Positions 7,877-57,416 of a stretch of 57,416 bases of DNA are shown here, in pieces. Location: positions 1 through 57,416 of the forward strand of contig PLLH01000068.1 in assembly GCA_003140895.1 (NCBI GenBank). Direction: 5' to 3'. Under the pieces are notes generated by a model, which ran no database searches, was not told where the DNA came from, and saw only the letters and a program-made list of their open reading frames with translations. Numbering within the stretch: the first letter of the stretch is position 1; each line of letters begins with the position of its first letter. A program made the translations under genes and the position numbers. The DNA comes from Elusimicrobiota bacterium. Lineage in GTDB: Bacteria; Elusimicrobiota; Elusimicrobia; F11.

Positions 7877-7878
7877 CG

Positions 7879-10367: not shown

Positions 10368-10408
10368 TTTGATTTGCCGGTTAATTGAAGATTAAAGGAT
10401 GGGTTTCG

Positions 10409-29235: not shown

Positions 29236-32200
29236 TGAGGACCATGAAATTGACGCGGCGAACTCGAATGCTTAACGCATGGAAACTATTCGGAATCGTT
29301 CTTCTCCTGAGCGCCTTTGCTCAGAACGCCTCCGCTACAATAGTGCATTTGATGACGGCAGACGCTCCTTTGAACACGGGTGGCCTGGGGCGTTTCGCCA
29401 TGATCATCACGTATGCCAACGCGGGATCAAATTTGGTTTTGGACAGCGCTTATACAGGGGATCCAACGCCTCCCGAGGGGGATCGAGTTCTTAAAACGAC
29501 TCTCTCCACGAGTTGGGGCGGGTGGGGATTTTTAAATACATCAGTCGCTAATAATGCGAACTACGTTTGGTGGCAGGATTTTACCGGATATGAGAATGGC
29601 AGCATCCGGTTCTGGCTTAAAAGCGATTCAACGCTCACGCTCGAGGTTAAATTTGTCGGCATGTGGGGTGATGAAACACGGCCTTACAATATCCCTTCAA
29701 CAGGGGGAGTATGGAAACCCATGGTGGTTCCGATGAGCAGTTTTGCTCCGGGAATTGATTTCAGTTATATTCGGTGTCCTTTTTTAATCACCGCGCCCGA
29801 CACCCCCGGTGCAAAGACATGGTCCGTCGATGACGTGAAGTGGGATTCCACTGTCCCAGGCGCGTTGGCTTCTATTCAGATCGCCACCACTCCCGCGGTG
29901 GTTCCTCTTGGATTTCAGCAGGTTTTTATCGCCTTGGGTTACGATTCAGTGGGGCGTTCCGTCGACATTTTACCCACATGGAGCGCCGGCAGTTTGGGGA
30001 CATTCAATCGCACGGCTGGAGGGATGGTGAGGTTCTTCGCAACAAACACACCTAGTTCGGGCAATTTAACCGCCACCTACAGCGGAGTAACGGGATTGGG
30101 CTCAATTTCGGTCCAGAATGTGAATTTCACTCAGTACAATGTTTACTCCGATATAGGAGCCGGGGGGTATGTGGGCGCTTCCCCCGCGGGAGGAAACCCG
30201 ATTCTCACTGAAATAACGGACGCGTCGGCGCCGGAAGGAACGAAATATATGAGGGCCACATATTATTTGGCCACATCGCTTGATTGGTCGGTATGGTATG
30301 TGAGCCAGCAAGATTATGCCCGGTATATGAAACCCTATGAGAACGGTTACTTAAGGTTCAACGTTCGTTCCACCAAGAACCTCCTCGTGAAAATCAATTC
30401 AAATAACATTCCCGCCGGGACCGAGCAATCGAAGATTAATCTGGATGAGCTGGGGTTTATTCCCAATGGACAGTGGCAGGATATTATCGTCCCGATGGCG
30501 CTTTTCAAAGTGAAAGAGCCGAATTTAGACTTTACGCAGATTAAAACCTATTTCACGATTGGAACTCTGTACGATTTGGTTGGGGCTGTTCCAAGCGGAA
30601 CGTTCGATGTGGACAACGTGAGATGGTTAACGACGAGCCAGGACGCGCCGGATCCGGCGAAGGTTCTGCAAGGGCTGGTTGAGAAACAAAATTCGACGAC
30701 GGGTCTCCTGGCGTCTTTCGATACCGTCAATCAAGCGGTGACCTACGATCAAGCGTTGGCGGCCATGGCGTTCACGTTCAGTAAGGATTTTACGCACGCC
30801 CAAAATATTTTCAACGCCTATCAGTCTCTCTATAGCGCCGGGCAAGGGTTTGCCGATACGTATCGGGTTGACACCAAGGCTGTCCTTGATAATGACCGTC
30901 TCTGCGGTCCCAATGGATGGATGTTGCTGGCGTTGATTCATTATCGAAATGTCTCTGGATCAACGGCTTACGATACGATGATCGACGGGTTGGCCGCTTG
31001 GTTAAAAGGATATCAGGATTCAACGGATGGCGGTATTAAATTTGGTAATCCCGTGAACGCGGGAGAGATCAACGTGAAATCAACGGAACATAACTTTGAC
31101 GTCTATGCCGCTTTTCGCGCTTACGCCATGCTGAGAGGAAACGCGGCGTACAACACAGCGGCGGACCAAATTATGGGGTGGATAAACTCAACAGCCTGGA
31201 ACGCCGCTGAAAAACGGTTCAACGTCGGAGAATTCCCCGCCGGTGGGGCCGATACCGACAAAGCGTTGGACGCCTACTCATGGGCTCCGTTGGCCTTGGG
31301 AGTGGAAGGGGCGTTTCCCTATGCCACGGTTTTGGCCAATGCCGAAACGACGTTCGGGACGACCAAGGTGAATAGCAACAACGGGAATGCCATCACGGGT
31401 TACGATTTTGGCGCCGCGGCGGGGGTCGCCCCGGATAAAGATTCGGTTTGGCTGGAAGGGACGGGGCAGATGGCCATGGCGTATCTCGCCATCGGAAATG
31501 AAACGAAGGCCAATGCGATTCTTGATCAATTGCGCCGGGCCGTTTTCAGCGTGTCTCCCACGGCTCAAGGGATGACCTATGCAACCAATATGGGAACGGC
31601 GTATGGCGGATGGATGATGGATGCCACCAATGCGGCCATTAGCCCCGCGGCGTGGTATCTGTTTACCGAGTGGAATTTTAATCCGTTCAGACCGTATTTC
31701 CTTCACTCGGTGACTGTTAAAAACGTGAGCGACAACAGTTCGGCGTCGGAGATGTCATGGCTTGGCGTGAACGCGCGCGATGGATGGAGATTGGCGAAAC
31801 AATACATTCAGCTCGATGCCCAACCGATTTCGAAGGACCCGTGGGGGATTCAGATTTACACGGACAATAAAAACGCCTCGTCAGCGCCCCAGTTCGTGGA
31901 TCCCTCGCCAACGAATACAACCAATATGGATTCCAATCCGGCGGGGCTTCTGATCGATATCCCGGGACAAACCACGACCTATATGACGTTGCCCATTGCC
32001 TGGTCTATTAAGAAAGATACGACAACGGCTCCTGTCGCGGCCAACCCCAATGACAATGGAATAAACGGACATCCCACCGATTCAAATAGTTACCAGTGGC
32101 TTTTTATGAAAGATCGGGGAACGCCCACCATGGACGGAGACGGGGATGGACTGACTGGCGGGGCCTTTGATATCACCGCGTTTGCGGATGGAGACCGCTA

Positions 32201-32390
32201 CATTCGTGTGATGCAGAAATCAACGATCTCCGGCGCTCGTGGCTCCGTCCATATGTTCTCCGGCCCCGTTGGAAACGATTTTTTTGACACCCTCTCGCCT
32301 AACTTTCTCTTCTTCGAAAGTGATTTTACCGGCGCGCCGGCTCAGGTGACGTATCGGACGAAGTTGACCCTCGAGTTTTTCACCGAATAA
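29235..32390 (+). CDS. Large secreted multidomain protein: two jelly-roll domains, (alpha/alpha)n catalytic-like domain, C-terminal domain shared with the 26282 ORF
   Basis: Signal peptide; WSVDDVKWDS and GTFDVDNVRWLT jelly-roll ends; STEHNFDVYAAFRAYAML...VWLEGTGQMAMAYLAIG helical-barrel-like; C-terminal GIQIYTDNKNAS...LPIAWSIKKDT. Confidence 0.75.
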   Translation: MRTMKLTRRTRMLNAWKLFGIVLLLSAFAQNASATIVHLMTADAPLNTGGLGRFAMIITYANAGSNLVLDSAYTGDPTPPEGDRVLKTTLSTSWGGWGFLNTSVANNANYVWWQDFTGYENGSIRFWLKSDSTLTLEVKFVGMWGDETRPYNIPSTGGVWKPMVVPMSSFAPGIDFSYIRCPFLITAPDTPGAKTWSVDDVKWDSTVPGALASIQIATTPAVVPLGFQQVFIALGYDSVGRSVDILPTWSAGSLGTFNRTAGGMVRFFATNTPSSGNLTATYSGVTGLGSISVQNVNFTQYNVYSDIGAGGYVGASPAGGNPILTEITDASAPEGTKYMRATYYLATSLDWSVWYVSQQDYARYMKPYENGYLRFNVRSTKNLLVKINSNNIPAGTEQSKINLDELGFIPNGQWQDIIVPMALFKVKEPNLDFTQIKTYFTIGTLYDLVGAVPSGTFDVDNVRWLTTSQDAPDPAKVLQGLVEKQNSTTGLLASFDTVNQAVTYDQALAAMAFTFSKDFTHAQNIFNAYQSLYSAGQGFADTYRVDTKAVLDNDRLCGPNGWMLLALIHYRNVSGSTAYDTMIDGLAAWLKGYQDSTDGGIKFGNPVNAGEINVKSTEHNFDVYAAFRAYAMLRGNAAYNTAADQIMGWINSTAWNAAEKRFNVGEFPAGGADTDKALDAYSWAPLALGVEGAFPYATVLANAETTFGTTKVNSNNGNAITGYDFGAAAGVAPDKDSVWLEGTGQMAMAYLAIGNETKANAILDQLRRAVFSVSPTAQGMTYATNMGTAYGGWMMDATNAAISPAAWYLFTEWNFNPFRPYFLHSVTVKNVSDNSSASEMSWLGVNARDGWRLAKQYIQLDAQPISKDPWGIQIYTDNKNASSAPQFVDPSPTNTTNMDSNPAGLLIDIPGQTTTYMTLPIAWSIKKDTTTAPVAANPNDNGINGHPTDSNSYQWLFMKDRGTPTMDGDGDGLTGGAFDITAFADGDRYIRVMQKSTISGARGSVHMFSGPVGNDFFDTLSPNFLFFESDFTGAPAQVTYRTKLTLEFFTE

Positions 32391-37177: not shown

Positions 37178-39037
37178 ATGCCGTTCGTACTTGGTTTCAT
37201 TCCCCCGTTCATCGATGGATTGGGAAGCGCGTCCGTTTTTTGGTCGTTGGCGAAAAATATCAAAGACAGTGCCGGATCTGTTTTATGTTTTAGCCCGGCG
37301 AGATCTCTCTATCCCCGTTTAAACGATGAATTCAAACCTTTTCCGTGGACGTCGTTTAAAGAAGGGAGGCACAGCGCTTCCTTGTCCGGCAAGACGGATG
37401 GCCGGGACCTGTTTAAACAGGTCTCACCCCCGGCCGCTTACCTCGATTGTTTTGATCCGGATATGGCATCGCTCCTTGACGTGTGCGGCCCCGCGATGAT
37501 TTGGATGACGCCAAGCTTCATGCTCTCACAACTCGCCGATCCGCCACTGATTCGAAAAGTTTCCGTGGTGGTCATCGGCGTCGCGCCGACCTTGGAGGGG
37601 ATTGAGCAAGCTTTGTTCGAGCGGGGCCGTCTCTTAACCAAGGGGGTATCGGCGGAGGACATCGAGTTCCATCTTCTTAACGCCGGCATCCCCGGCGGGA
37701 TTCCAGTGGAGATGATTCGGGAACACGTGGGACTTTTGAGCGCCGTCTATCCGTATGATCCCGAACCCCTGCTCCACTCAGAGAGCGAAGGGAAACCCAT
37801 CCAGTCGATCGCGCCTCGTTCATCGTTGGCCGCAGCGTTACGGGCGGCCACCGAAGGAATGTTGGAACGGGCGAAGAGTAGAGAAGCGCGGCGCGGAGCG
37901 GCTCCCGCGCCTTCGTTGAGCGAGGCCCAGATCGAACGGAGGGTCATTGAACGGTTGTGGCGCCGGTTGGGACCGGCAGAACAGACCGGTTCGTGGACGC
38001 CGGGCCAAATCGATCACCAGATTGAACGGGAACTTCACGCGGTCCTGTCGGAAAACGCGGTCTCCGGCATGGGCGAGGAGGAGGTGAAAAAAATGACTCA
38101 ATGCGTTCGCGACGGCGTGATGGGGCTTGGACCCTTGGAGAAGTTAATGAGGGATGATTCGATCAGCGAAATTATGGTCAATGGCCGGGATCAGCTTTTT
38201 GTTGAGCGCGAGGGGCGTCTTGAGCCGTTTCCCGAGGCCTTCGTTTCGGATGTTCAGTTGAAGGTGGTGATAGATCGAATCGTGGGGCAGATGGGCCGTC
38301 GAGTGGACGTGTCATCTCCGCTCTGCGACGTCCGCACGCGAGACGGGTCTCGCGTCAACGTGGTTTTGCCGCCGGTTTCCATCGGGACTCCGGTTGTGAC
38401 CATTCGCCGTTTTCGTCGTTCGCTTCTGTCGTTCGATGATTTGATCGCGCGCGGGTCGCTTAAGCCCGAGGACGCCGAACGGTTAAAACGGCATGTGTCG
38501 AACAGAGATAATATTCTGATCGCCGGGAACAGCGGTTCGGGGAAAACAACGCTCCTCAATATTCTCTCCGGAGTGATTGATGAGACCGAACGCATTATCA
38601 CCTTGGAGGACGCGGCGGAGCTGAAGCTTCAGCAGCCTCATGTGGTTCGGCTTGAGACGCGTCCCAAAAACACCGAAGGAGAGGGGGAGGTGACCATGCA
38701 TGCCCTCGTCGTTAATTCGCTGCGCATGCGTCCCGACCGGATTATCATCGGGGAGTGCCGTGGGGCGGAAGTGATTCCCATGCTTCAGGCCATGAACACG
38801 GGGCACGATGGGTCGATGACCACCCTCCACGCCAATTCGGCGGAAGACGCGCTTCAGCGGCTTGAGTCCATGATTTTGTTGGGGGCGCCTCAATGGCCGT
38901 TGGATATTGTCCGCCAGCAGATTGCGTCGAGTTTGGATCTTATTGTGTATCTGAAACGAGAGGGAGCCCAGCGCCGGTGTACCGGGATCAAAAAAATTTA
39001 TTTTGACGCGGGTCGCCTGGCCCTTCTAGAGGAGTGA
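37178..39037 (+). CDS. CpaE-like (degenerate) domain fused to CpaF/TadA secretion ATPase
   Basis: CpaF half: [67 protein letters not shown]-terminal about 230 aa CpaE-like without Walker A. Confidence 0.88.
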
Positions 39038-39040
39038 GTC

Positions 39041-39712
39041 ATGATGACAACGGTTGTCGTTCTTGGCGCGGGAATCCTGGGGGGAATTGGAATGTGGATG
39101 GTTTCTGATCCGGCGGCCCTGTCTGCTTTGGCCGGTCGGCTCAAAGAGGCGGTTCACCGATGGGAACGGTTTCGCTGGCGAGAGAGAATCATTGATCAGT
39201 GGCCGGACGGATTGACCTTGCTCTCCGGGGCAGTCAAAGCGGGTCTCACGCTGGATGAAGCGTTGACCGTTCTTATGACGGAGTCTCCGCAGCCGCTCAG
39301 AAATCATATCGCGCGCCTGTTGGGCGAGGCGTCTCATTGGCTTCCATTCCAAGTTCGCGTCCAGATTCTTTTCAAAGACCCGTCTTTATCCTTGGCGCGG
39401 GCCACCTTGCTCTTATCTCACGCCGCCGGCGGGCGCGCGGCGGATTTGTTGGAATCGTGCGCGCGGATTTTAAGACGCAAGAGCGAGCTTCGGGAAAAAG
39501 CCCGCATGCTGACCGCTCAAGCGCGCTTAACAGCGTGGGTTGTCGGCTTGTCTCCGTTCGTTTTGATGGCGTTGCTTCAGGTTTTATCGCCGGAACTCAT
39601 TCGCCCGTTTTTCGCGTCAAAGGCGGGGCTATTCCTTTTGGCGTTGGTAATTCTTCTGGTGACGGCGGGTCTTTGGACCGTTCATGTGATGGCGAAAGGA
39701 TTGGACGCGTGA
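39041..39712 (+). CDS. tadB: TadB-like type II secretion F-domain protein
   Basis: DGLTLLSGAVKAGLTLDEAL, paired C-terminal TM helices; follows CpaF. Confidence 0.85.
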   Translation: MMTTVVVLGAGILGGIGMWMVSDPAALSALAGRLKEAVHRWERFRWRERIIDQWPDGLTLLSGAVKAGLTLDEALTVLMTESPQPLRNHIARLLGEASHWLPFQVRVQILFKDPSLSLARATLLLSHAAGGRAADLLESCARILRRKSELREKARMLTAQARLTAWVVGLSPFVLMALLQVLSPELIRPFFASKAGLFLLALVILLVTAGLWTVHVMAKGLDA

Positions 39713-40455
39713 AGACGAGCGTCGTTCTCTTCTTTTCGATATCCGTTTATATCGCCTGCCAGGCTTTCTTCGAACTTCATTGGAAGAGCCGTTTGCGCCG
39801 GCGATGGGCGGAGGCGTCCCTGACGCCGTCCTCGCTCGGCGTCCGCCGCTGGTTTTTGTGTGGGGCGTGGGGCGCGATCGGCGCTCTTCTCCCATGGCTG
39901 GTTTTTCAAGATCAGGCGTGGCTTGCTCTCGCCGGCGGCGCTTTTGGGGTGTGGGTTCCCTTCCACATCGTTCGTGAAGAGAGGCGGAAGAGGACGTGGG
40001 CGAACTGGACACAATTTCCTGATTTTTTGGAGCTTTTGGCGATGGGGTTGTCCGCCGGGATCACGCTGGAGAAATCGTGGGAGCTGGCCTCCGGGCATTT
40101 GCCGGAGGGATCCTTGCGGAGCGAACTGATTCAGGCGTTCCGCTCCATGGAATGGGGTCAGTCCCGCGAGGAGGCGTTCCATTCACTTCAACAACGGTTG
40201 GATGATTCCCGGGTTTCGTCGGTCCTCGTGTTGATCCACCAGGGGATGAAACGAGGCGTTTCTCTGCATTCGCTTCTTTTGGATCTCACGGAATCGATGC
40301 GGTTGTCGGCGTCGCTCACCGTTGAGAAAAAGGCGCATACCATGTCGATTCGCCTCCTCTTCCCTATCATGATTTTTATTTTCCCGAGCTTGTTCATCAT
40401 TCTCTTCGGGGCGCTTTTTCTCCAATACCTCCAAAACGGGGCCTTTGTTTTTTGA
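39709..40455 (+). CDS. tadC: TadC-like type II secretion F-domain protein
   Basis: [29 protein letters not shown] at 39709 overlapping tadB stop; the ORF-track start at 39337 lies inside tadB. Confidence 0.85.
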
Positions 40456-43591: not shown

Positions 43592-44401
43592 TTAGTAGTG
43601 ATTGAGGGTTCCGTCCATCTGTGAGCGTTGAAGAGCGATTTTGAAGGCCAGCGTTCCCACCGGCCAAATCACCAACGTGAAGCACCCCAGATAGAGGAGA
43701 TGATGCGAGATATCGGAGAATCCCGCGTTTGAGAGAAGGCTGTCTCGAAGAGCGGACAAGGCGTGCGTCATCGGAATCCAATCCGAAACGGATTTGAGCC
43801 AATTCGGTAAGATTTGAGTCGGAAAATAAACGCCGCCCAAGAGCTCGCTAAAAGTGGCGATGAGCCACGCCACGGGATTCCCCCGTTTAAACCGCAAGAT
43901 AAACGCCGCCGCGAGGACCCCCAACCCCATAAACGATGAGAGCGTGAGAAGAAGGGCCACCAAGGCGGGGAGAATGTTGGCTTGAGGGAGCACGAGTCCA
44001 AAGGTGGTGAACCCGACGATGAAATAGAGGATCACTTCGATGGTGGCATACGAGAAATCCCACAGGGCGGAGCCCGCCAAGAACGTGGGAATGCGGACGG
44101 GAGACACGAGGATGGATTCCAAGGTTCCCAGGAATTGCTCTTGTCTTAAGTTTTGCGAGAAGGAGTTGAGCCCCACCGATTGATAGGTTGAGAAGGCGAT
44201 CCCGATCAAAACAAAGGGGAAGTAAGCGCCGCCATAAGAGGAGAGAAAGGGGGAAGGGGCGGAATCAAACATCCGGGAGACGAAATAGAACGTGGCGGCG
44301 TTGAAGAAGACGCTGGCCATGTCCAGCACAAAAGCGAAACGATAGCTCGTGGCCTGCCGGGCATCCCGAAGGATGAACGAGAACAACGTTCTAAAAATCA
44401 C
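43592..44401 (-). CDS. ABC-2 type transporter permease
   Basis: Six-TM pattern, LGTLESILVSPVRIPTFL, overlaps ATPase gene. Confidence 0.88.
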   Translation of the reverse strand: MIFRTLFSFILRDARQATSYRFAFVLDMASVFFNAATFYFVSRMFDSAPSPFLSSYGGAYFPFVLIGIAFSTYQSVGLNSFSQNLRQEQFLGTLESILVSPVRIPTFLAGSALWDFSYATIEVILYFIVGFTTFGLVLPQANILPALVALLLTLSSFMGLGVLAAAFILRFKRGNPVAWLIATFSELLGGVYFPTQILPNWLKSVSDWIPMTHALSALRDSLLSNAGFSDISHHLLYLGCFTLVIWPVGTLAFKIALQRSQMDGTLNHY

Positions 44402-45168
44402 TTTTTCTCCTCCGCGTCGACGGTCTTTAAATAGAATTCTTCGACGGACATATGCTGAAGTTCTTTTTGAAGGTCCCGAGCCTCGATATTCTTGATGATT
44501 TCCCCGTTGTTCAAAATGACGATGACATCGGCTATGCGCCGGGCTTCTTCCAATTGGTGAGTGGAGAGGAGCACTGTTCGTTTGTGGACGCGGGCGAGGT
44601 GATCTTTGAGGAGCCGCCGGAAACGTAAGATGGTGTGGGGGTCGAGATTTCGCATGGGTTCATCCAACAAAAGAACCGATGGGTTATGAAGAAGCGCGCG
44701 TGTCAGGGCTATTTTCTGCCGGGCGCCGCCCGACACCTTGAGCATGGTTTGATCCAACTCATCATGCATGTCCAACTGAAGCGATAGATTGCCGAGGAGA
44801 CGGTCGATCTCCGGTTTAAGAAGGTTGTGCAGAGAAGCGAAAAATTCGATGTTTTGCCGCCCCGTCAATCGCCCATAGAAACCGCTCCGGTCTTCGGCGG
44901 GCATCCAACCGATGTGGGAACGGGCCATCGACGGGTTGTGCGCCAAATCGATTCCCATAATGGAGATGGATCCTTCGGTCGGCTCCAGGAGCCCCGCCAC
45001 TGTTTTAAGCAGCGTTGTTTTGCCGGATCCATTGGGTCCCAAGAGACACACGATTTGCCCCAGGGGGATTTCCAGCGACACATTGTTAAGCGCCGTTTTC
45101 CCCGTCGCGGATTTCCCGAAGCGTTTCGTCACATTTTTTATGTCTATTATGATGGGCGAATGTTCCAT
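44398..45168 (-). CDS. ABC transporter ATP-binding protein (ABC-2 exporter)
   Basis: [54 protein letters not shown]. Confidence 0.93.
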   Translation of the reverse strand: MEHSPIIIDIKNVTKRFGKSATGKTALNNVSLEIPLGQIVCLLGPNGSGKTTLLKTVAGLLEPTEGSISIMGIDLAHNPSMARSHIGWMPAEDRSGFYGRLTGRQNIEFFASLHNLLKPEIDRLLGNLSLQLDMHDELDQTMLKVSGGARQKIALTRALLHNPSVLLLDEPMRNLDPHTILRFRRLLKDHLARVHKRTVLLSTHQLEEARRIADVIVILNNGEIIKNIEARDLQKELQHMSVEEFYLKTVDAEEKK

Positions 45169-45387: not shown

Positions 45388-46353
45388 ATGTTGCGACGGG
45401 GACTATTGATGACATCTTTTGTTTTGTGCGCTTTCTCTATTGTGGGAGCGCAAGAAAGGCCGTCTCAGGAATACCGGGTCACGGATGTTCAAGGCCCCGC
45501 CGGCATTGTTCCAAAGCAGACGCGAGAACCTTCGCCCGCCATTAAAGGGTTGCTTCTTTTGCCGGGAGACCGGCTGATCACCGGGAAAGGGGGGCGGGTT
45601 GAAGTGGCCACGAAACAAGGGACGGTGATGGAGCTCAAGGAAGAGTCCAATTTGCGCGTCGACGCCATGTCTGAAAACGGGGGCGCCTTTTTCTTGAAAA
45701 TCGGGCGTTTGTTGGGGCGCTTTGCCTCAAAAAAAGACACCGGAAAGAACATGTCGTATCGTATTCGAACGCCGATGGCGGTGGCGGCGGTGCGCGGCAC
45801 CGAGCTTGGCATCGTCGTGGATGAAAACAAAGAAATGCAGGCCGGCGTCGTCGAAGGAGAAGTGGCGTTTGGCCCGGATGTGGAGCCGTCAACGTCCGAT
45901 GTCAAAACAGATGAGGCCACTCCTGTTCAAGTCAGTTCAGCGTCCGTCGAGGGAAGTTCTGCGACCATTGTGATGGACCGTGCCGATGATGACGTGTCCG
46001 CCTCCTCCGCCCCCCAAAGCGGGGAGATTGTTGTTCACGGATCTCAGGGAGTGGTGTATAAGCCGGGTGTCTCCCCGGTCAAAATGGCTCAGATTCCGCC
46101 CCTTGTTGTCAGCTCGCTCGATTGGTTTCAGAGCGTTCGCGCGCGCGTCCCCGCTCTCAGAGAGCAATGGAAAGAGTTGGATACGCCTTCCCAAATGAAG
46201 CTCCGCGCGGGGGCGTTGCGGGAAAAAATCACCTGGACCGTGCCGGCCAAACTGGGCGACGACATTATTTCCCCATCAAAAAGCATGGAAAAGAAACGCA
46301 TCCAGCCTGAAAAAATTCAGATCGAGAAACCGCGAGTCCCAAAACCGCAGTAA
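45388..46353 (+). CDS. FecR-domain secreted protein
   Basis: Signal peptide; LLPGDRLITGKGGRVEVATKQGTVMELKEESNLRVD, RTPMAVAAVRGTELGIVVDE. Confidence 0.85.
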   Translation: MLRRGLLMTSFVLCAFSIVGAQERPSQEYRVTDVQGPAGIVPKQTREPSPAIKGLLLLPGDRLITGKGGRVEVATKQGTVMELKEESNLRVDAMSENGGAFFLKIGRLLGRFASKKDTGKNMSYRIRTPMAVAAVRGTELGIVVDENKEMQAGVVEGEVAFGPDVEPSTSDVKTDEATPVQVSSASVEGSSATIVMDRADDDVSASSAPQSGEIVVHGSQGVVYKPGVSPVKMAQIPPLVVSSLDWFQSVRARVPALREQWKELDTPSQMKLRAGALREKITWTVPAKLGDDIISPSKSMEKKRIQPEKIQIEKPRVPKPQ

Positions 46354-46588: not shown

Positions 46589-49500
46589 ATGATGAACCCA
46601 CGCGAAAAACACTTGTACCGTAAGGTGACTGCGGTTATTGTGGCGCTCGCACAATTGCAGACTCAGGTCCTTTGTGCCGGGCTCCCCTTTGTAACCGGCC
46701 TACCCCCCGGGTTCGACACGCTTTCTCTGAAGGCTTCGTTGTTCGCGAAAAAATTGATTTCAAACGGTGTCGTTGTCTTTCACGCTTATCCCTACTCCAC
46801 CTTCATCGATCCCCGCGGCAAGACAGACCTTCCCCAGGAATCCCGCAGCACGCCCGAGCAAGCCCTTGAACGAGAAGAACAGCAGATGGGCATTTTAAAG
46901 AAGATGGAAGAACTCCAGATCTTCGCTCAAGAGACGTTTCAAAACCGTCCCAAACTTCCCAACAGCCCCATCGATATTCTGGACAGTATCTCCACCTACC
47001 GGTTGAATACCAACGTGGCCAAGGAAGTGAAAAAGGTGTACGAGAGCCGGCTGAATTCCGAACAAGCCATCGATCAGGAAATACAAACCATGCGCAAAGC
47101 CGTGACAGGCGCCGGCGGGTCCATGCGCACGCAGAGCGACGGATCCCGCTGGTTCTATATTCACGGCCTCTTGGCGTCCATTCGAGGTCAACGATACGTT
47201 GATGGAAACGGCCAGATCACGACGGTGGATACGCGCCGCATCAAGTACGACAAAGAGCGCCGGCTCCAACGGGGATCCACGCGGATTTCCAAGGATAGTT
47301 TGGGGAACGTGACGGTCACGGTGCGCTCCGATACGGAGTACACGAAAGAGTCCAATGAGCACGGCACGCAAATCGTCACCGATTACAAGGACACGATTCT
47401 GGACCCGAACGGAAACGTTCGCGTCGTCGAACGGCACAACATCACCTATTTGCAGGGGCCCGACGTCGACAAGAAGCAGAAGGGCGTTTACGTGACGTCC
47501 TATGACGAGACCGAAACGGATCAATTCGGGAACAAAACGACGCGGAGCTGGGACAACGGGACCTATATCAAACTGGGGCAGCAGAAGGACTGGTATCTCA
47601 CCGGATACAACCAGACGGAAACCGATGCCGATCACAACACGACGGTGACCCGCTGGAGCGGCGGGACCTACGTGCACAACGCGAACTATCAGAAGCTTCA
47701 TTCCATCAACACCACCCGGCAGGAATATGTGCTGGGGAGTTATATCCAGGAAATCACCGACGCGAAGGGACTGGTCCGGACGGAAAAGTGGACGAACGGA
47801 ACGTATGACAACCGGGACAACCTGGCTTCGTTTGATCAGACAAATTTAAACGCCGCCGGGGAGCTTCCCACCTTGATCGAGTTTCGGAACGGCGTTTACG
47901 ATTCTCGTGGACGCCAAATCGCTTACGCGCGGACGGAAAAAATGGCGGACGGATCTCAAACCAAAGTGACCCGCTTGAGCACCGCCTACAACACCCTCGG
48001 TGATACGACGTCTTACACGGAGCGCGTGGAAGGAAGCGATGGGCTGGTCCTTCGCGTTGACCGGTTCGGCATCACCTACAACAAAAAGCGGCAGCAACTC
48101 GCCTACAAAGAAACGCGCATGGATCAGGAGGGAGGCCTCATCGCTTTCGCGTGGTCGGCGCTGGAAAGCGGAGTGGACCAAGAGGCTGTGGCCCGTTCCG
48201 GGGAGAAAGGCTACGACTCCCGAGGCCGTTTGATCGGGTATCAGGAAACGACCGAGGCGGAGGGGCTTGTTGTCACCCATTTAACCACGGGGGTCACGTT
48301 TGACGCGCGCGGCGGACGAGCCAGCTCGACGGAAGTCACCCAAACGACGGGCGTGTTGGACGGCGCGGATGTCGATGTGACGCACATCGTTGAGACCAAG
48401 CGGCTCGACACGCAGTATGGAGACAATGGGCAGGTCGGCTCGTATCGGGATGAGATCATGGATTGGGCCCAGGACAACAACGACAAGGATAAAACGATTT
48501 TGCGGGATGTGCTCACCATGCTGGTCCGGGAAAATATTACCACCAGCGGTTATGTGGAAACGAAGGCCACGACGGGCGGAACCAAACGAACGGAGGCGGG
48601 GCAAGACGATTCGGAAACGATCACGACGCAGGTGGTCACCCAGCAAACCGACACCGTCTATGACGGGAGCGGCCGCGTGAACAGCTATAAACAGCGCGTG
48701 ACGGATTCAACCGATCCGGAGAAGGTGACGAGCAGCGTGTTTTCTCATTTGTTGTATGACACCCAAGGGCGTCTGATTCATTCCCTTGAAGAGGCGCAGA
48801 TTGATTATGTGACCAGCGATCCTGCTTACAATCGGTCCTATACCATGGAAACGGAACGAGGAAAGATGGTCTATGACGCCTTTGATCGGATTTCGAGCGT
48901 TGAGACCCGGACTCGAACCCTGACGTCCGGAACGGACACCACCACCGTCGCCAATCGAACCAACGTGGTTTATAACGCCATGGGGGATATCGCCCGCTAC
49001 ACCGAAAGCGTTGAATCGAGCGCCTCTCCCAATCTCACGGAGACGACCGTTTGGCAAGGAGAGAGCTACACGGCTCTCGGGCGCTTGAACGCGTCTCTTC
49101 AAACGCAGCGGAGCGCAGGCCGGGACGAAAACGGCAATCAACTGGATAGCTCCCGCACCATCCATACGACCAACATGGCGTATGACGATCGAAACCGGTT
49201 GACGCGATATACCGAGGTCGTCAATGGGTCGGACGCGCCGGGTGTGACGACGACCAATCAGATTAACGCCATCGCCTACGATGCCAAGAATCATCAAACC
49301 ATTTTGGACCAAACCACGTTAAGAGAAGGAGCGGGCGTTTATGAATTAACCACCACCAAACGCCGGATCCTGGAACCGTCGGATGGAACGGGCGTCGTTA
49401 AAAAATTCGAGGAAACCATCACGACGCCGGACGGCGTCACGACAACCAACACGCAAACGGTGGATTGGACGGATTGGGGCTTCAATGACCAGGTTCTATC

Positions 49501-52500
49501 GCGATTGACGGAATCGATCAGTTCCGAGGCGACGGGTGTTTTGACGATAACGCAATACGCCGCCCTCTTTGATCGAACCGGGCGAGCCATTCAGACCGAT
49601 GAGGCGATCCATAAAACCGGGCCGTCCGTTGGAAGCGACGGCGCCCTGGACATTGAAACCACTCGCCAAACGTTAATGACCTATAACGCGCTGGGTCAGC
49701 TGGGTAAGAGAATTGAAAAGACGGATAACCAAAAGACACGCACCAGTTCCGTTGTCACACAGCTTTCGTCTTATGATACCGAAGGGCGCCTTTTCTCGAT
49801 GACGGAAACCAATGAAACTCAGGGGGAAGGGTATTCGCGCCAGCAGCAAACGACAACCCATAACTACCAATATACTGATTCCGGCCGCGTGAGTGGATTC
49901 ATCCAAGAGGTGATGTCGTCCGATTCGCCGAGCTTGGTCACTCAAACAACCCGGTCCGGCGCCTCCTATAACCTGGCCGGGCAACAAACCGGATACACCG
50001 ATGTGGTTTCTGAGAAAGGCGGCGACCTGGATCACGTCACCACGACGATTCGGAGCGGGGTTGAGTACGATTTGGGCCGCCTGAAAAAATACAAGGACGT
50101 GTCCTTTGACGGAACAACGCAGGAGGCCGACGAGGTCACAAAGGTCACCGAAACATTGGACACGACCTATGACGCGGCGAGCGGCATGGTGACCGGGAGC
50201 CACATTTTAACCACAGAGACAGGAGCGGGACTCCATCACACGCGCGACGTGGTCCGCAGTGGCGTGGAATACAACACGCAGGGGCAGGAAACGAATTACG
50301 TCGAAACCATCAACGATAGCGCAACACCTCTGATCACAGAAACAGTCACTCGCACGGGCGCCTCCTATAATTACGGGCTTCTGGCAGGCTACGCGGAAGT
50401 CACTCATCGAACTGCGTCCGACGGAAGTCTGGATACGACTTCAACTGTTCAACATTCGCGCTTGGCCTACGACGCCTTCGGGCGTTTGGCGGAAGATGAA
50501 AGCCGTGACACGGATATTTATGGAGCTGTGACCTTTCGTCTGCACACGCAAGCGTATGGCGCGACGGGGCGTGTGAATGAAACATTGGATCGGGCCGAAC
50601 AACAAGGGACGGACATCGTCACAACCACTCATCGAACCGACATCCACGTCACCAAATGGGGAGATCAGGCCTCTTACACAGAGACCCAGCAGTCGACGGA
50701 TAAGCCAGGCGTTGTTACCACTGTCATGTGGACGGCGCAGGGAGGAGCGCGAAGCGGCTACAATAACCTGGGTCAGTTGGCCGGGTTTCATCAAGTTGAG
50801 ACGACAAAGGGGCCGACCTTAAACCAGACCCTTCAAACAGACCGTTCCAATATCGGATACACGGAGGCCGGGCAGATCGCTTCGTATAACGAGATCCGGT
50901 TGGACGCGTCCACGCCTGATTTAGCAGAACAAATTTCCTGGACGATAGAAGAGAACGGCTATAACGGCTTGGGCCAACAAACCGGATACAATTTGTCGAC
51001 GCGCCGAATTGACCGGTCGGGTCAAGGCCGTCTGGATGTCATCACCCGTCAGGAGTATCGGGAGCTCAAATACAATCTGCTGGGCCAGTTGACGGATTCA
51101 TCCCTCACCAATATCCAAACGGGATCCGGTCTTAACTCAACGACGAGCGAAAAACGTTCTTCCATCGCCTATGACATCTATAACCGCCAGTTGGGATATA
51201 CGTTGGTCTCTACCGACGCGTATGGAAACCAAACGACCGCGGTTCGGACGAATGTCATCTACGATAATCTGAGCCATTTGATCCATTATGAAGAGAGCAT
51301 TCAGGATCCCGTCTATGACGGATCGAATACGTCATTGACGCATGAAGTCATCTGGGATGGGACCGGATATAACTCAGAAGGACAGCTGACGGGATTCGTG
51401 AAAGACGATCGTGAATTTGAAGACGGTGTTTTAAGAGACGCCACTCACACCGAGAGATCTTTTATTACGTATAGCGCGGCCGGAACAGAGTCGTCTTATC
51501 ATGATTTGACTCACCAGATTTGGAGTGACAACGCGGAAACCCTCACCGAAGCCGACCGAAAAAACATCGCGAACAACTCCTTGGGTCAATTGGCGTCATG
51601 GGAGGAAAAAGGAATCACCACCACTCTGCAGGACGGTTCCGTCCTGCGCGAATTGGCGGTCAGCACCACTTGGCGGGCGGGTAGTTCCAGCGGCGACTGG
51701 GGCTACTCCCAAAACGGGCTCACGGCCGCCTATGAACAGGTCGTGACAAGCGCGTCGTTGTTGGATACGTATCAAGCCACCGAAACCACTCGCTGGTCCG
51801 GCGGGGTGTACAACGCCAAAGGCTCGTTGATTCAATTTACCCAGACGGTGCAGAAAGCGGGAGCGAGCCAGGAAGCGCTGGTCATCCCGGCGGAATGGGA
51901 CGCCTTCACGGAGTTGCAGAAGGCGGAATATTTGAGCGCGTATAGTTTTGTTTTGGACAACGGGCAGGTGGTGGATTGGAGCGATTTGCCAACGCTCGCG
52001 CGGGTGAGTCTTGTGGCCATTGGGAAAGCCGTCATTAATGGAAAGGACGTGAAACTCCGGAACATGATCGTTCGGAGTCTGTTGAACTCCTCCGTGACGA
52101 CGGAACGCTTGGGAACCGCCTATAATTCACTGGGATTGGCGCAACGCACTCAAGAAAACATCAATGAGAACAATCTGAAAACGAGTCGCGTGTGGGAAGC
52201 TCTCACGGTCAACGCGCGCGGCCAAGCGTTAAGCACGGGCGAAGACACGACGGGGGCGACGGGGGAACTGACTCATTCCGACAAAACCGGCATTGTTTAC
52301 GATCTGCATGCCCGTATCAAAAGTTATCACGAACGATCGACCGTCAGCACCTCCGACGTGTTGACGGCGCAGGACGTTCAGTCTGTTTATGACGCGCTGG
52401 GACGCCTGACCGATCAAGAGAGAGTGGCGCGTGAGGATTCCGTGGATGTCAACGGCACCGTGAAAACGGGCGGAATCCACAAGGATTCGACGGTGCTTCT

Positions 52501-55500
52501 CCGGGGAATTCAGTACGACCGGTTTGACCGGCAACTCGGATACGATCAGATTCAGTTTGAAGGAACCGCCATCGTGATCGGTGGGACATCGTATCGTTGG
52601 GACGCGCTGACGATCGATCAGCAGAACGACATATTGTCCGGCCGCGCCGTTGCCGATCAGTTGATCACGGTCACATCCATGCGGGGTATTAATTATGACT
52701 TGGCCGGGAGTCAATCGGGCTTCTTAAGGCTTCAGCTTCAAGCGGGCCTTCAAACAGGAACGGTGGATTCTGGCGCGACCACGCTTGAAACGGCTCAGTC
52801 CACGGTCCGTTCCGGCGCGCGGTATTACCAATCGGGGAATTTGTCCGGGCTTGCCAGCGGTTATAAGGAAATTACCAAGACAAGCGGATCGGACCTTCAG
52901 ATAAAAACTTTGACCCAGGGCATCAAATACGATCAGGGTCGGCAGACGAGTTTGAACATTCAGAGCGAAACGATCGGGAAAGTCGGTACGGAGGCCATCG
53001 AGAAGAAGACCCTGATCTCGCGGCACAACATCACCTACGACGCCTCGGGGATTCAAACGTCGGCGATGGAGGATTCAACCGAGAACGGCCTGCGGACGAC
53101 CGCGATTTCCCAGACGTTGTCATACGACGCGAAGGGCCGCGCGTTGGAAACCAAGACCGTGAGCATTGTTGAAGGGGAAACCACGGCGGCTTCTTATTAT
53201 TTGAACGGCGAGGAAGTGGATCCGTCAGTCGTTGAACAAATTTTAGCGAATGATCCGAACGCGGTCTTAAGCGGTCTCATGACCGAAGTGGACGGCCCGC
53301 ACCGCGTGAGCGAAGTGACGTCCTCCAGCCGGAAAAATATTTCTTATGACAACCTGGATCGGCAAATCGCCTACACCGAGGAAACCGTTTCCCCGGGGGA
53401 CGTGTTGACCCGGACCGTTGTGGACGGCATCCAATTTGACAGCCTCGGACGGCAACTGGCGTATCACAGCCTCACTCAATCCGAAGGATGGACGCTCATG
53501 TATTATTTCAACGGAGTCGCGGTCGACCCGGAACGGCTCGTCGACACGTTGAAAAGTCAGGGGGTCTCGTTGTGGGACGCTCTGGCCTCAGGACTCGTGG
53601 CCGCCGCCTACGAAAAATCCAATCTTTCAACGCCCAAAGAATCCTATCGTTATGATATGGGATACGACGAGAACGGATCCTTGAGCGGATATAAAGAATT
53701 TACGCGGGATTACGCGGCGGGACTTTTGGGGCAATACACCGACGTCACGCAGATTTCCTACAACAAGTACAACAAGATCGCGTCCCAAACCAGTCGAACC
53801 TCCTCGTTGAACGGCGTTTTCCTCGGCCAGGAACAGAGCGTTAAAACCAAAGCCGATATCAACTATCAAATGAATTCCCTGTGCGGGGACCATCCCGATT
53901 ATTGCCAGTCCAAGTCGATGACGGAGAGCACGTTGACCTACTCTTATTATTCCAATGGGAATCTAAGTGGGGGGCAAAGCCATTCCGTCACTTCTAGCGT
54001 TGATTTGGTCTCTGAGGGCCAGACCCAAACGGTGAGTGATGATTACCTGACGATGGTCGGTTCTCAGGCCAAAACCCTCATGACGCTGTCGTCTTCGAAA
54101 ACGGTGGGCAAAGATTCCACGGTCACCGAAGGGCAATCGCTTCGCCTCAATAATTACAACCGGCGGGACGGTTCTCTCACTTCCGCTTATGAGTTGGGGT
54201 CTTCCCGCACCATCGATCCGGCGGCGAAAACAGACACCCTCACCCAGACTCGTCAAATATTGGGCTCCGTCGGCGGCGACATGAAGGTCCTCTTTACGTT
54301 TAACGACACCAAGACTACTTATCCGACGGATCCGGTCCAGCCGACGCGCCTGGGGCGTTCTTCGATGGTCAATCATTATGACGAGCAAGGGCGCCTCTTG
54401 AACGCCGTCGGGTTTGATGAATCCATTTCCAACGACGGGTACGACAACATCACGACCAGCCGGTCCCGGCAAACGTACGCGTCGGTGGGCGACCGCGCCC
54501 GTCTTAAACAGGTCGTCAATGAATCAACCACTCTTAAAGTGGAAGGCAGCACGTCTTTAAGCCACAGCGTCATCAATTACACGATCGATTCCCAGACCGG
54601 CCTGGTTCAAAGCGCGATGGAAACCGGCGACTTTATGAACCACGAGAGAGTGATCACGACCGACGCCGACGGAACTAGTACGGGAAGCGGGTTCGTCGAT
54701 TCCACGGGAACGACGCAAAATTTCTACGAGGATGTCCGCCTGGGAGAAGTCAAACTGACCCGCTCCCTTTCGAACACGACCAGCGCCGCCCGCGCGGACG
54801 GAACCCTCACAACGGACAGCCGGTATACGGAATATTTTTATGACGACGTGGGGCGGCTCATCTCCGCCGTGGGAGACAAGGCGCACTTCACGCGTTCCAA
54901 TTGGGCGTCGTACGTCGGGAGCCGTTCCCGGGGCGGGCAAAGCGAGACGCGCACGTATTCAGAAAACGGCCAGCTTATCAGCGAAACTGCCAATGATTCC
55001 GATTCTTACTACGAGATCATCAATAATCAGGCCCGGCTCGTCAAAACCGATTCGATTTCACAAAGCGCCAACCGGTTGGACGGAGATGGGTCCACCAGCG
55101 TTCAGGAGATTCAGGTGATTTACGTGAACGATCAGAACACCGGCCGCGCGCTGAGCGCCGAGGGCACGGGAAGTTTCACCAATCATGATTGGGCCCTGTT
55201 GGATTCGAGAAATCAAAGCACGGGAGAGGTGAGCACCACGACGGGTGAACTGAGGCAGTCTTATTCCCTGATTCGCGGGGAGGCCCGCCTGGTGAAGAGC
55301 CTGTCATGGAGCCGGACAGCGAATATCGATGGATCGGAGTCGGTGATTGAGGAGTCCGATCCGAGCGTCACCACGTATCTCTACAACAACCTCGGCCAGA
55401 TGACCGGCGCCGTGGCCACAAACAATTCCAAGACCAATGAGGTGGGACTCACGTCGGCAACCGACCCCAGCCAGGGGATTCTCGAGACGTCTCGCACGAC

Positions 55501-57416
55501 AACACGGTCAACTCAGAAAATGATTATCGTGATGGGAGAGTCCCGCGTTTTGTGGAGCGATTCCACCTCTCACACCACGCAGTTGGATGCGGCCGGGAAC
55601 CCGGAAGGGTCTACGTCCGACCAAGTCATGCATGTGGAGTATTCCTACGATGCCCAGACAAGCCGCGTGACGGGGGCACAGGGAACCGGCACAACGAGTT
55701 CCCGGGACTCCTACGGGAATGTGTCCAAGGGGACCGTCGATCAGGCCTATGTCGTTGTCGCCAATCAGGCGCGGGTCGCCAAATCGGTAACGTCCACCGT
55801 CACGGAGAACATTGATCTCTCTTACGCTCAGCAAAAGATGACGACGGAAAACGTGTACGCCGACAATGGATTCTTGAAGGGCGCGATTTCAGAAGGGTTC
55901 TCCGTCAATATTAATGAGTCGGGCGACGCGTCGGACGGGACCATCAAACAAACATTCCGCGTGGTGAACGGCCAGGCCAAACTCTCAACGAACACAACGG
56001 TCACCGATTCGGCCGGCTCCGACGGCGGCACGAACCATCAGTCCGTCCGGGTCCGCTACGACTACAATTCCAAGGGATTCTTAATTAGCGCGACCGTCGG
56101 CGAGGGCGATGGATCGTTGGACGGCGTCGATTCAGAAGGAAATGTGACGTCGGGTTCGATCACGCAGACCTATGAAATCATCTTGAACCAAGCGCGGGTT
56201 CTTGAATCAAGAACCGCGACTCACGTGTCTTACGTGGACGATGCCGTGACGGAACAGACCTTGGTTATTCGATATGAGAACGACTCCAACAATGGACATC
56301 TCACCAACGCTTATACGCCGGCCTCATCGGGGGCCGTCAACCGGTGGACCACGACTGATCCCAATGGGGCCACCGTCAGCGGATCCATTCAGCAGACGTT
56401 TAATGTGGATCAGATCGCGAAAACAGGGCAGGCCAAAGTGGATGAGTCCTGGAGTCTCGCTGACGGCGTCACCTTCAACGGGACCGACTTCGTCGGATCG
56501 ATTCCGACAACGGCGCACACCGATTCCTACAGCAAGAATATGTACGAACCAACGTTTGGGTCGTTGACGAGTTCCTTCTCCATTTCTCGCCGCATCAATG
56601 TGGCCGGTGAGATCACGAAACAGACTCAGACCGCCGACTACACGGTTCATGATTCCGATGATCCCGGCGGGACGTATAAAAAAGGATACCGCGAGGCAGG
56701 GCATATCTACGGGTCCACCGTTCGTCTTGGGACCGACAACGCGGTTCTTGATTCGACGGACTTCGACACCGTTGAAACCTATACCACTCTTCCTTACACA
56801 AGCTTGAATGGCGATAAGCTCTTCCGCGCCCGCCGGACAGAGTCTTTCACCCGGTCGACCAGCAAGGCGATTGACGGCGGCGACAGTCACACCGAAACCA
56901 ACACCTTCTACGCTTATGATAAGGACGGGCGGATGGTTCTTGAAAATGACGAAGGGAAAAAGACGGTTGGCGCCGGGTTCTCCATCAGCCATTCGGGGTT
57001 CAGCGCCGATGGAACTCCGTGGGACGAGGTGAGGACGATTATCAGCCAGGTTTATGAAGTGATTCAAGTGGGAATTGGCGTGGCCAAATTGAAACAAAAC
57101 ATTTCCATCTCGGATACCTACCATTATGACAACGCCGCCGGGTGGCAGCAGCAAAACGCCATTTTGGCGGAGCGCAGCGGGAAAAATAAAGTGGACGCTG
57201 GCGGGAACGCGTTTTCCGTGACCTCGCTGGCGGGCCTGGACGCGGGGACGGCGCTCTTGGGCGGACGCGACGGGACAACCAACCATCAGGAGTTGTCCGT
57301 CATGTATTTGAACAGCGAGAGCTCCCGGGTTCTTAAAGCGCAAGGGATCGGGCAATCCGTTCAAATAGACAAATACGGGAACAAAACGATCGGGAAGATT
57401 TATCAGGAGTACGATT
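46589..57416 (+). CDS. Giant secreted repetitive protein (YD/RHS-like degenerate repeats), 3'-truncated by window end, at least 3609 codons
   Basis: ATG ATG AAC with SD aaggagaaat; hydrophobic N-terminus VTAVIVALAQLQTQVLCAG; no in-frame stop found reading line by line to 57416; recurrent Y[DN]xxG[RQ]LxxYxE units. Confidence 0.92.
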   Translation, partial: MMNPREKHLYRKVTAVIVALAQLQTQVLCAGLPFVTGLPPGFDTLSLKASLFAKKLISNGVVVFHAYPYSTFIDPRGKTDLPQESRSTPEQALEREEQQMGILKKMEELQIFAQETFQNRPKLPNSPIDILDSISTYRLNTNVAKEVKKVYESRLNSEQAIDQEIQTMRKAVTGAGGSMRTQSDGSRWFYIHGLLASIRGQRYVDGNGQITTVDTRRIKYDKERRLQRGSTRISKDSLGNVTVTVRSDTEYTKESNEHGTQIVTDYKDTILDPNGNVRVVERHNITYLQGPDVDKKQKGVYVTSYDETETDQFGNKTTRSWDNGTYIKLGQQKDWYLTGYNQTETDADHNTTVTRWSGGTYVHNANYQKLHSINTTRQEYVLGSYIQEITDAKGLVRTEKWTNGTYDNRDNLASFDQTNLNAAGELPTLIEFRNGVYDSRGRQIAYARTEKMADGSQTKVTRLSTAYNTLGDTTSYTERVEGSDGLVLRVDRFGITYNKKRQQLAYKETRMDQEGGLIAFAWSALESGVDQEAVARSGEKGYDSRGRLIGYQETTEAEGLVVTHLTTGVTFDARGGRASSTEVTQTTGVLDGADVDVTHIVETKRLDTQYGDNGQVGSYRDEIMDWAQDNNDKDKTILRDVLTMLVRENITTSGYVETKATTGGTKRTEAGQDDSETITTQVVTQQTDTVYDGSGRVNSYKQRVTDSTDPEKVTSSVFSHLLYDTQGRLIHSLEEAQIDYVTSDPAYNRSYTMETERGKMVYDAFDRISSVETRTRTLTSGTDTTTVANRTNVVYNAMGDIARYTESVESSASPNLTETTVWQGESYTALGRLNASLQTQRSAGRDENGNQLDSSRTIHTTNMAYDDRNRLTRYTEVVNGSDAPGVTTTNQINAIAYDAKNHQTILDQTTLREGAGVYELTTTKRRILEPSDGTGVVKKFEETITTPDGVTTTNTQTVDWTDWGFNDQVLSRLTESISSEATGVLTITQYAALFDRTGRAIQTDEAIHKTGPSVGSDGALDIETTRQTLMTYNALGQLGKRIEKTDNQKTRTSSVVTQLSSYDTEGRLFSMTETNETQGEGYSRQQQTTTHNYQYTDSGRVSGFIQEVMSSDSPSLVTQTTRSGASYNLAGQQTGYTDVVSEKGGDLDHVTTTIRSGVEYDLGRLKKYKDVSFDGTTQEADEVTKVTETLDTTYDAASGMVTGSHILTTETGAGLHHTRDVVRSGVEYNTQGQETNYVETINDSATPLITETVTRTGASYNYGLLAGYAEVTHRTASDGSLDTTSTVQHSRLAYDAFGRLAEDESRDTDIYGAVTFRLHTQAYGATGRVNETLDRAEQQGTDIVTTTHRTDIHVTKWGDQASYTETQQSTDKPGVVTTVMWTAQGGARSGYNNLGQLAGFHQVETTKGPTLNQTLQTDRSNIGYTEAGQIASYNEIRLDASTPDLAEQISWTIEENGYNGLGQQTGYNLSTRRIDRSGQGRLDVITRQEYRELKYNLLGQLTDSSLTNIQTGSGLNSTTSEKRSSIAYDIYNRQLGYTLVSTDAYGNQTTAVRTNVIYDNLSHLIHYEESIQDPVYDGSNTSLTHEVIWDGTGYNSEGQLTGFVKDDREFEDGVLRDATHTERSFITYSAAGTESSYHDLTHQIWSDNAETLTEADRKNIANNSLGQLASWEEKGITTTLQDGSVLRELAVSTTWRAGSSSGDWGYSQNGLTAAYEQVVTSASLLDTYQATETTRWSGGVYNAKGSLIQFTQTVQKAGASQEALVIPAEWDAFTELQKAEYLSAYSFVLDNGQVVDWSDLPTLARVSLVAIGKAVINGKDVKLRNMIVRSLLNSSVTTERLGTAYNSLGLAQRTQENINENNLKTSRVWEALTVNARGQALSTGEDTTGATGELTHSDKTGIVYDLHARIKSYHERSTVSTSDVLTAQDVQSVYDALGRLTDQERVAREDSVDVNGTVKTGGIHKDSTVLLRGIQYDRFDRQLGYDQIQFEGTAIVIGGTSYRWDALTIDQQNDILSGRAVADQLITVTSMRGINYDLAGSQSGFLRLQLQAGLQTGTVDSGATTLETAQSTVRSGARYYQSGNLSGLASGYKEITKTSGSDLQIKTLTQGIKYDQGRQTSLNIQSETIGKVGTEAIEKKTLISRHNITYDASGIQTSAMEDSTENGLRTTAISQTLSYDAKGRALETKTVSIVEGETTAASYYLNGEEVDPSVVEQILANDPNAVLSGLMTEVDGPHRVSEVTSSSRKNISYDNLDRQIAYTEETVSPGDVLTRTVVDGIQFDSLGRQLAYHSLTQSEGWTLMYYFNGVAVDPERLVDTLKSQGVSLWDALASGLVAAAYEKSNLSTPKESYRYDMGYDENGSLSGYKEFTRDYAAGLLGQYTDVTQISYNKYNKIASQTSRTSSLNGVFLGQEQSVKTKADINYQMNSLCGDHPDYCQSKSMTESTLTYSYYSNGNLSGGQSHSVTSSVDLVSEGQTQTVSDDYLTMVGSQAKTLMTLSSSKTVGKDSTVTEGQSLRLNNYNRRDGSLTSAYELGSSRTIDPAAKTDTLTQTRQILGSVGGDMKVLFTFNDTKTTYPTDPVQPTRLGRSSMVNHYDEQGRLLNAVGFDESISNDGYDNITTSRSRQTYASVGDRARLKQVVNESTTLKVEGSTSLSHSVINYTIDSQTGLVQSAMETGDFMNHERVITTDADGTSTGSGFVDSTGTTQNFYEDVRLGEVKLTRSLSNTTSAARADGTLTTDSRYTEYFYDDVGRLISAVGDKAHFTRSNWASYVGSRSRGGQSETRTYSENGQLISETANDSDSYYEIINNQARLVKTDSISQSANRLDGDGSTSVQEIQVIYVNDQNTGRALSAEGTGSFTNHDWALLDSRNQSTGEVSTTTGELRQSYSLIRGEARLVKSLSWSRTANIDGSESVIEESDPSVTTYLYNNLGQMTGAVATNNSKTNEVGLTSATDPSQGILETSRTTTRSTQKMIIVMGESRVLWSDSTSHTTQLDAAGNPEGSTSDQVMHVEYSYDAQTSRVTGAQGTGTTSSRDSYGNVSKGTVDQAYVVVANQARVAKSVTSTVTENIDLSYAQQKMTTENVYADNGFLKGAISEGFSVNINESGDASDGTIKQTFRVVNGQAKLSTNTTVTDSAGSDGGTNHQSVRVRYDYNSKGFLISATVGEGDGSLDGVDSEGNVTSGSITQTYEIILNQARVLESRTATHVSYVDDAVTEQTLVIRYENDSNNGHLTNAYTPASSGAVNRWTTTDPNGATVSGSIQQTFNVDQIAKTGQAKVDESWSLADGVTFNGTDFVGSIPTTAHTDSYSKNMYEPTFGSLTSSFSISRRINVAGEITKQTQTADYTVHDSDDPGGTYKKGYREAGHIYGSTVRLGTDNAVLDSTDFDTVETYTTLPYTSLNGDKLFRARRTESFTRSTSKAIDGGDSHTETNTFYAYDKDGRMVLENDEGKKTVGAGFSISHSGFSADGTPWDEVRTIISQVYEVIQVGIGVAKLKQNISISDTYHYDNAAGWQQQNAILAERSGKNKVDAGGNAFSVTSLAGLDAGTALLGGRDGTTNHQELSVMYLNSESSRVLKAQGIGQSVQIDKYGNKTIGKIYQEYD

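What the first reader, a model, noticed from the sequence alone, without database searches (positions are those of the whole stretch)
46589..57416. Giant open-ended ORF (at least 3609 codons) missing from the supplied ORF track
From ATG 46589 (SD aaggagaaat) the frame stays open for 10,828 nt to the window end; I split every line into codons and found no stop. The track lists only short, mostly antisense, ORFs here, so an automatic pass could call this 10.8 kb empty. The protein starts with a signal-like segment and is Thr/Ser/Gly/Glu-rich with only three Cys codons by my reading (46673, 53882, 53903). It consists of degenerate units such as YDSRGRLIGYQETTEAEGL, YNNLGQLAGFHQVETTKG and YDAFGRLAEDESRD. 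The motif is YD/RHS-like, but the units look longer and more diverged than canonical RHS repeats. It is likely a surface or secreted adhesin or shell-like protein.
Basis: partly seen in the sequence, partly recalled or inferred. Interest (0 to 1): 0.85.

Follow-up and report, generated by a model that had tools for sequence, protein, structure and literature searches.

The report
Giant repeat protein of Elusimicrobia bacteria
The open frame at the window's end is the first quarter of one real, conserved gene for a secreted protein of more than 14,000 amino acids, built of hairpin-like repeats and found at the same place in related Elusimicrobia; it is probably a surface or contact structure, but what it does is untested.

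Summary
The frame from ATG 46589 (conserved start: next codon, 46592) is open to the window end, which falls where the assembler wrote 'NN'. Beyond it the frame stays open for 7,163 codons to the end of contig C91 and resumes on contig C23 for 3,376 codons to a TAG: at least 14,148 residues in three pieces. A relative of the same family carries the gene unbroken (18,143 residues, no Ns). One alignment with it covers 11,000 residues at 45% identity, across both assembly gaps, with codon position 3 changing most. Flanking genes are syntenic.

The host is an Elusimicrobia bacterium related to Ca. Obscuribacterium magneticum. The protein has a signal-like N-terminus, 42 repeats of about 38 aa, 103 of about 74 aa, and a non-repeat C-terminal part. 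No natural segment matches Pfam or NCBIfam, but the consensus of either repeat scores above RHS/YD cut-offs. AlphaFold makes the first repeat type a ladder of antiparallel strands. The last 200 residues are conserved in four genera and carry a JAB/JAMM-like motif that profile methods do not confirm.

Giant genes in Elusimicrobia were already reported; this is a new variant. Its function is inferred.

The parts
46589..57416 (+). 5' part (3,609 of at least 14,148 codons) of the giant gene; conserved start codon 46592; continues outside the window on contig C91 57419-78911 and contig C23 1-10131 (TAG)
   Evidence: unbroken 18,143-aa ortholog in G001
46589..46681 (+). signal-like N-terminus (basic start, hydrophobic core, A-x-A-like end in relatives)
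   Evidence: conserved in four genera; read by eye, no predictor run
46682..47200 (+). conserved non-repeat N-terminal region
   Evidence: 53-64% identity over the first 330 aa in three other genera
47201..53773 (+). type I YD-like repeats, 42 units of about 38 aa (residues 205-2395)
   Evidence: iterated profile; consensus over PF05593 and TIGR01643 cut-offs; AF2 of six units pLDDT 77.9, all beta
53906..57416 (+). first of the type II repeats (about 74 aa; 103 units in the whole protein, nearly all from residue 2440 on)
   Evidence: iterated profile; consensus over PF05593 and TIGR01643 cut-offs
45388..46353 (+). neighbour: FecR-domain gene upstream (context only)
   Evidence: PF04773 E 5.7e-12; also upstream of the giant in G002
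43592..45168 (-). neighbours: ABC-2 permease and ABC ATPase genes (synteny markers, context only)
   Evidence: same place in G001 and G002

Best explanation
The frame is the start of one intact giant gene of an Elusimicrobia bacterium. It encodes a protein of at least 14,148 residues with a Sec-type signal, about 145 diverged RHS/YD-like beta-hairpin repeats in two successive types, a basic low-complexity stretch, and a C-terminal domain of about 200 residues with a JAB/JAMM-like metal-site motif. Shown: the ORF, its continuation, collinear orthologs with amino-acid-level constraint, the repeat anatomy, kinship of the repeat consensus to RHS/YD repeats, the conserved C-terminus and the conserved locus. 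Inferred: it is exported through Sec; the repeats stack into a long beta structure (fibre or hollow spiral shell) on or outside the cell; this structure carries the C-terminal domain for contact with other cells or matter, and that domain is a metal hydrolase acting on the protein itself or on a target.
For: Open frame of 3,609 + 7,163 + 3,376 codons. Unbroken 18,143-aa ortholog without Ns. Single alignments 2-11067 vs 2-11092 at 45% (G001) and 2-10046 vs 5-10528 at 49% (G002); the first passes through both gaps, the second through the NN gap. Differences per codon position 0.40/0.35/0.64. N-terminus 53-64% identical; C-terminus found in 4/4 family members. Repeat profiles; consensus over PF05593 and TIGR01643 cut-offs. 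AF2 of six type I units: antiparallel strands of about 10-13 residues, pLDDT 77.9. Only one borderline TM-like stretch and 12 Cys in the whole protein. Synteny on both sides.
Against: No natural segment reaches an RHS/YD model. Fold matches are not significant: BAM-EspP E 0.05, an RHS BC complex at rank 9 with E 0.76. The JAB reading rests on a motif; hhalign gives 2.6% probability, Pfam none, and the AF2 model of that region failed (pLDDT 34). No adhesion, sorting or barrel domain; route across the outer envelope unknown. No expression or protein evidence.
Confidence: 0.6

Rival explanations
1. A structural coat, sheath or spacer: the repeats themselves are the product and the C-terminal domain serves only processing or anchoring.
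For: Repeats fill almost the whole protein and are collinear over 11,000 residues; the C-terminal domain is the same in four genera. A coat role was proposed for the giant ORF of Ca. Velamenicoccus archaeovorus (PMC10066038).
Against: No anchor or S-layer motif found; lengths differ between orthologs (at least 14,148 vs 18,143); type II repeats in only 16 of 199 class genomes, so it is no general envelope part of the class.
Confidence: 0.22
2. An RHS-type polymorphic toxin: the repeats encapsulate a C-terminal JAB toxin that is delivered into competing cells.
For: RHS repeats with a C-terminal JAB domain are a described toxin architecture, Tox-JAB-1 and Tox-JAB-2 (PMC3482391); motif E, HTH, T, D at the C-terminus.
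Against: The tip is conserved, not swapped, in four genera; no same-strand immunity-sized gene directly downstream; no RHS core-associated domain hit; the repeat region is far too long for one shell of known kind.
Confidence: 0.13
3. An artefact: a chimeric contig, a decaying gene or a chance open frame.
For: The gene is broken by an NN and a contig end.
Against: Unbroken 18,143-aa ortholog without Ns, collinear alignment through both gaps, codon-position signal, synteny, chance about 10^-64 for the window part alone.
Confidence: 0.03

Closest known systems
RHS / YD repeat proteins (PF05593, TIGR01643; Rhs, WapA, Tc-toxin C component, teneurins)
   Same: YDxxGRL motif in both repeat types, consensus above curated cut-offs, antiparallel strand ladder in the model
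   Different: Units of 38 and 74 aa; natural sequence below every model; roughly ten times longer than a usual Rhs protein (own knowledge: about 1,500 aa); no RHS core-associated domain hit; fold match to an RHS shell not significant
Giant ORFs of Omnitrophota (e.g. the 39,678-aa ORF of Ca. Velamenicoccus archaeovorus) and giant genes reported for Elusimicrobia
   Same: Size class, poor annotation, related phyla (PMC10066038; PMC12057145)
   Different: Those were described as poorly conserved, often with several TM helices; this one is collinear across genera, with almost no TM-like stretch and one repeat grammar. Whether they share these repeats could not be tested
Tox-JAB RHS toxins (polymorphic toxin systems)
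   Same: RHS-like repeats followed by a C-terminal H[ST]H-type motif (PMC3482391)
   Different: Conserved rather than swapped tip, no adjacent immunity gene, an extra 8 or so residues between HTH and T-x-x-D, Thr in place of Ser

Membership tests
RHS/YD repeat proteins | Repeat units score above curated RHS/YD model cut-offs | tested here: inconclusive
   Natural sequence: none. Consensus of type I and II: PF05593 25.1 and 26.3 bits (cut-off 22), TIGR01643 30.0 and 25.6 (cut-off 15.8). Type I seeds were picked with a YD-like pattern, type II seeds with another motif
RHS/YD repeat proteins | Stacked antiparallel beta-hairpins closing into a shell | tested here: inconclusive
   Strand ladder in a six-unit model, pLDDT 77.9; no significant PDB match
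RHS/YD repeat proteins | RHS core-associated domain near the C-terminal end of the repeats (a feature of Rhs toxins) | tested here: not met
   No NCBIfam hit in C-terminal pieces of three orthologs and of one other giant
Polymorphic RHS toxin systems | Variable, swapped C-terminal toxin tip | tested here: not met
   C-terminal domain conserved in 4/4 family members
Polymorphic RHS toxin systems | Immunity gene next to the toxin | tested here: not met
   Directly downstream lies an antisense response regulator in G000; no same-strand ORF of 60+ aa within 600 bases in any of four genomes
JAB/JAMM (MPN) domain | Metal-site motif E ... HxH ... S-x-x-D | tested here: inconclusive
   E-x-A-G, HTH and T-x-x-D in all four members; T instead of S and a longer loop; HTHPDxPMPTAxD in two giants of another family
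JAB/JAMM (MPN) domain | Profile or fold match to the family | tested here: not met
   Pfam none, hhalign against Prok-JAB proteins 2.6%; the fold could not be judged, AF2 model pLDDT 34
Giant ORFs of Omnitrophota/Elusimicrobia | ORF longer than 20 kb (criterion of PMC10066038) | tested here: met
   At least 42.4 kb in this genome; 54.4 kb unbroken in G001

The most novel reading that the evidence does not exclude
A giant-protein family in which a very long YD-repeat structure presents a conserved JAB-like metal hydrolase near its C-terminal end, kept in place over genera and recurring in other Elusimicrobia families with giants that may exceed 24,000 residues: a fixed, non-polymorphic counterpart of RHS toxins used in cell contact, processing or predation.
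Probability: 0.2. Interest if true: 0.8.

Novelty: new variant of a known kind. Interest (0 to 1): 0.55.

Why it matters
Giant bacterial genes are usually met as isolated, poorly conserved ORFs, often broken by assembly. Here one can be followed at the same locus through related genera, with a collinear repeat order over 11,000 residues, a defined repeat grammar and conserved ends. That makes the class testable with pieces of tractable size and links it to the RHS/YD world. It also shows how annotation hides such genes: two Ns and a contig end turn one gene into three.

Tried and rejected
Pfam and NCBIfam scans of natural segments: nothing. AF2 of the C-terminal domain with the only two rows allowed: unusable, not searched further. 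First repeat alignment (A4) matched overlapping rows to themselves and was discarded. PDB sequence searches with C-termini: chance-level hits. Genome-collection scan with the N-terminus: no confirmed relative; the scan with the C-terminal alignment worked. hhalign of the C-terminus against JAB proteins: weak, so the JAB reading stays at motif level. A viral-contig scan with type II repeats could not run for lack of conserved words. Rejected: that the ORF ends at the literal stop 57434, which is an effect of the NN; that the track's omission means anything biological.

Full report
Observation. The frame from 46589 is open to the window end for 3,609 codons. With the local base composition the chance is about 10^-64. 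The ORF is listed once open ends are allowed, so its absence from the track is a convention of the track.

Beyond the window. The window lies on contig C91 of a 2.5-Mb genome in 118 contigs. C91 has 78,911 bases. The window stops exactly before 'NN' at 57417-57418. After the NN another phase is open for 7,163 codons to the contig end. The stop at 57434 in the literal frame is an effect of the two Ns: the phases agree if the true gap is a multiple of three, and two relatives align through the spot in register. A search of the own genome with the last part of the frame found contig C23, whose first base lies in an open frame of 3,376 codons ending in TAG. The last repeats of C91 and the first of C23 are 79% identical in DNA, which may be why the assembly broke there. 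Minimum length: 14,148 residues. That C23 follows C91 is inferred from open ends on both sides, from repeat similarity and from the collinear ortholog; no read or overlap joins them.

Relatives and host. The N-terminus is found in the three other genomes of the same family. One of them, G001, has the gene unbroken: 18,143 residues, no N. A single alignment joins residues 2-11067 of the window giant (pieces joined with X) to 2-11092 of G001 at 45% identity, through both gaps; another joins 2-10046 to G002 at 49%. Differences by codon position are 0.40/0.35/0.64 over 10,662 codons, the pattern of a constrained protein. The C-terminal part was found in the same four genomes and no others of 150 sampled. 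A scan of named genomes with it returned Ca. Obscuribacterium magneticum DUR003 and Elusimicrobia bacterium RA.bin92; their loci share exact sequence with G002 and G003. The former is Elusimicrobiota, class Elusimicrobia.

Locus. Upstream genes (epimerase, CHASE2-cyclase, ABC-2 permease, ABC ATPase, FecR) are conserved in G002, and all but FecR were found in G001. Downstream, a PhoB-type response regulator and a histidine kinase on the other strand and a PilB-like ATPase follow in G000, G002 and G003, and in G001 about 5 kb away. The gene is an old resident of this place.

Anatomy. The N-terminus looks like a Sec signal (MNPREKHLYRKVTAVIVALAQLQTQVLCAG) with an A-x-A-like end in the relatives; this was read by eye. 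Iterated profiles find 42 type I units of about 38 aa (residues 205-2395) and 103 type II units of about 74 aa (nearly all between residues 2440 and 12146). The same profiles find 34 and 134 units in G001, and 10 and 55 in G022, a 15,714-aa giant of another family. Natural segments hit nothing in Pfam or NCBIfam. The consensus of each type scores over the cut-offs of RHS_repeat (PF05593) and YD_repeat (TIGR01643) as best match. A consensus sharpens weak signal, and the type I seeds were chosen with a YD-like pattern; the type II seeds were chosen with another motif, so that test is less circular. AlphaFold of six type I units, on window sequence only, gives long antiparallel strands throughout (pLDDT 77.9). 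No PDB match is significant; an RHS shell appears at rank 9 with E 0.76.

C-terminus. After the repeats comes a stretch rich in K, R, P, Q and S, then non-repeat sequence. The last 200 residues are conserved in all four members, with E-x-A-G, then PFHTH, then ARFAPT-x-x-D. Canonical JAB proteins read E-x-C-G-L-L ... HTHPDHPARPSQID. Two giants of another family have HTHPDxPMPTAxD about 620 residues before their end, and G022 has HTHPKGNFASQTAQD about 260 before its end. Shuffles give 0.02-0.06 such motifs per protein there, though G022 has one further match elsewhere. Profile methods and the fold model do not confirm the domain. I hold it as plausible but unproven.

Function. RHS repeats with a JAB tip are a described toxin architecture (PMC3482391), but a swapped tip and an adjacent immunity gene, both defining for polymorphic toxins, were tested and not met. 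A fixed surface or contact structure fits better. Giant ORFs in Omnitrophota were linked to attachment, coats and predation (PMC10066038), and Elusimicrobia were named among the lineages where giant genes are common (PMC12057145), so size alone is not new.

Distribution. Type II repeats occur in 16 of 199 sampled class genomes, 14 of 62 genera, in five families, and in 9 of 250 genomes of a phylum sample. Fragmented assemblies make these minimum counts. Other phyla were not searched.

Verdict. Real, intact as far as can be seen, conserved, and part of the known class of giant genes; a new variant by its long, diverged YD-repeat grammar and conserved terminus. Its function is inferred only.

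Noticed in passing
G000 contigs C116 (L071, 3-2633 minus) and C100 (6908-11410 minus): The own genome has a second repeat giant, seemingly split over contigs: an 877-aa 5' part running off C116 and a 4,000-aa open frame on C100. That the two are one gene is not shown.
   Followed up: partly
L071, L063, L076, L079 (G000:C116, G006:C22, G001:C6, G008:C11): Other repeat giants lie close to RND (ACR_tran) pump genes, some also near proteins with TIG/FlgD_ig or CHU_C domains. A link to export is possible; the window giant itself has no such neighbour.
   Followed up: partly
G015 contigs C3 and C20 (L077, L067-L069); G006 contigs C5 and C22: Frames of 5,096 aa (open at contig end) and 18,984 aa (open at contig start) in G015 would make a giant of at least 24,080 aa if they are one gene; G006 looks similar.
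   Followed up: no
L038, C-terminal 1,500 aa of the G022 giant (ends at 9481): Enzyme-like motifs in a row: HEAYH (zincin-like), a possibly ART-like segment, then HTHPKGNFASQTAQD. No Pfam support.
   Followed up: no
window 27943-29232 and 29235-32390: A protein with a CHU_C (type IX secretion signal) domain, followed by a 1,051-aa protein without a Pfam match.
   Followed up: no
window 37178-40452: T2SSE and T2SSF genes (type II secretion or type IV pilus) lie upstream of the giant.
   Followed up: no
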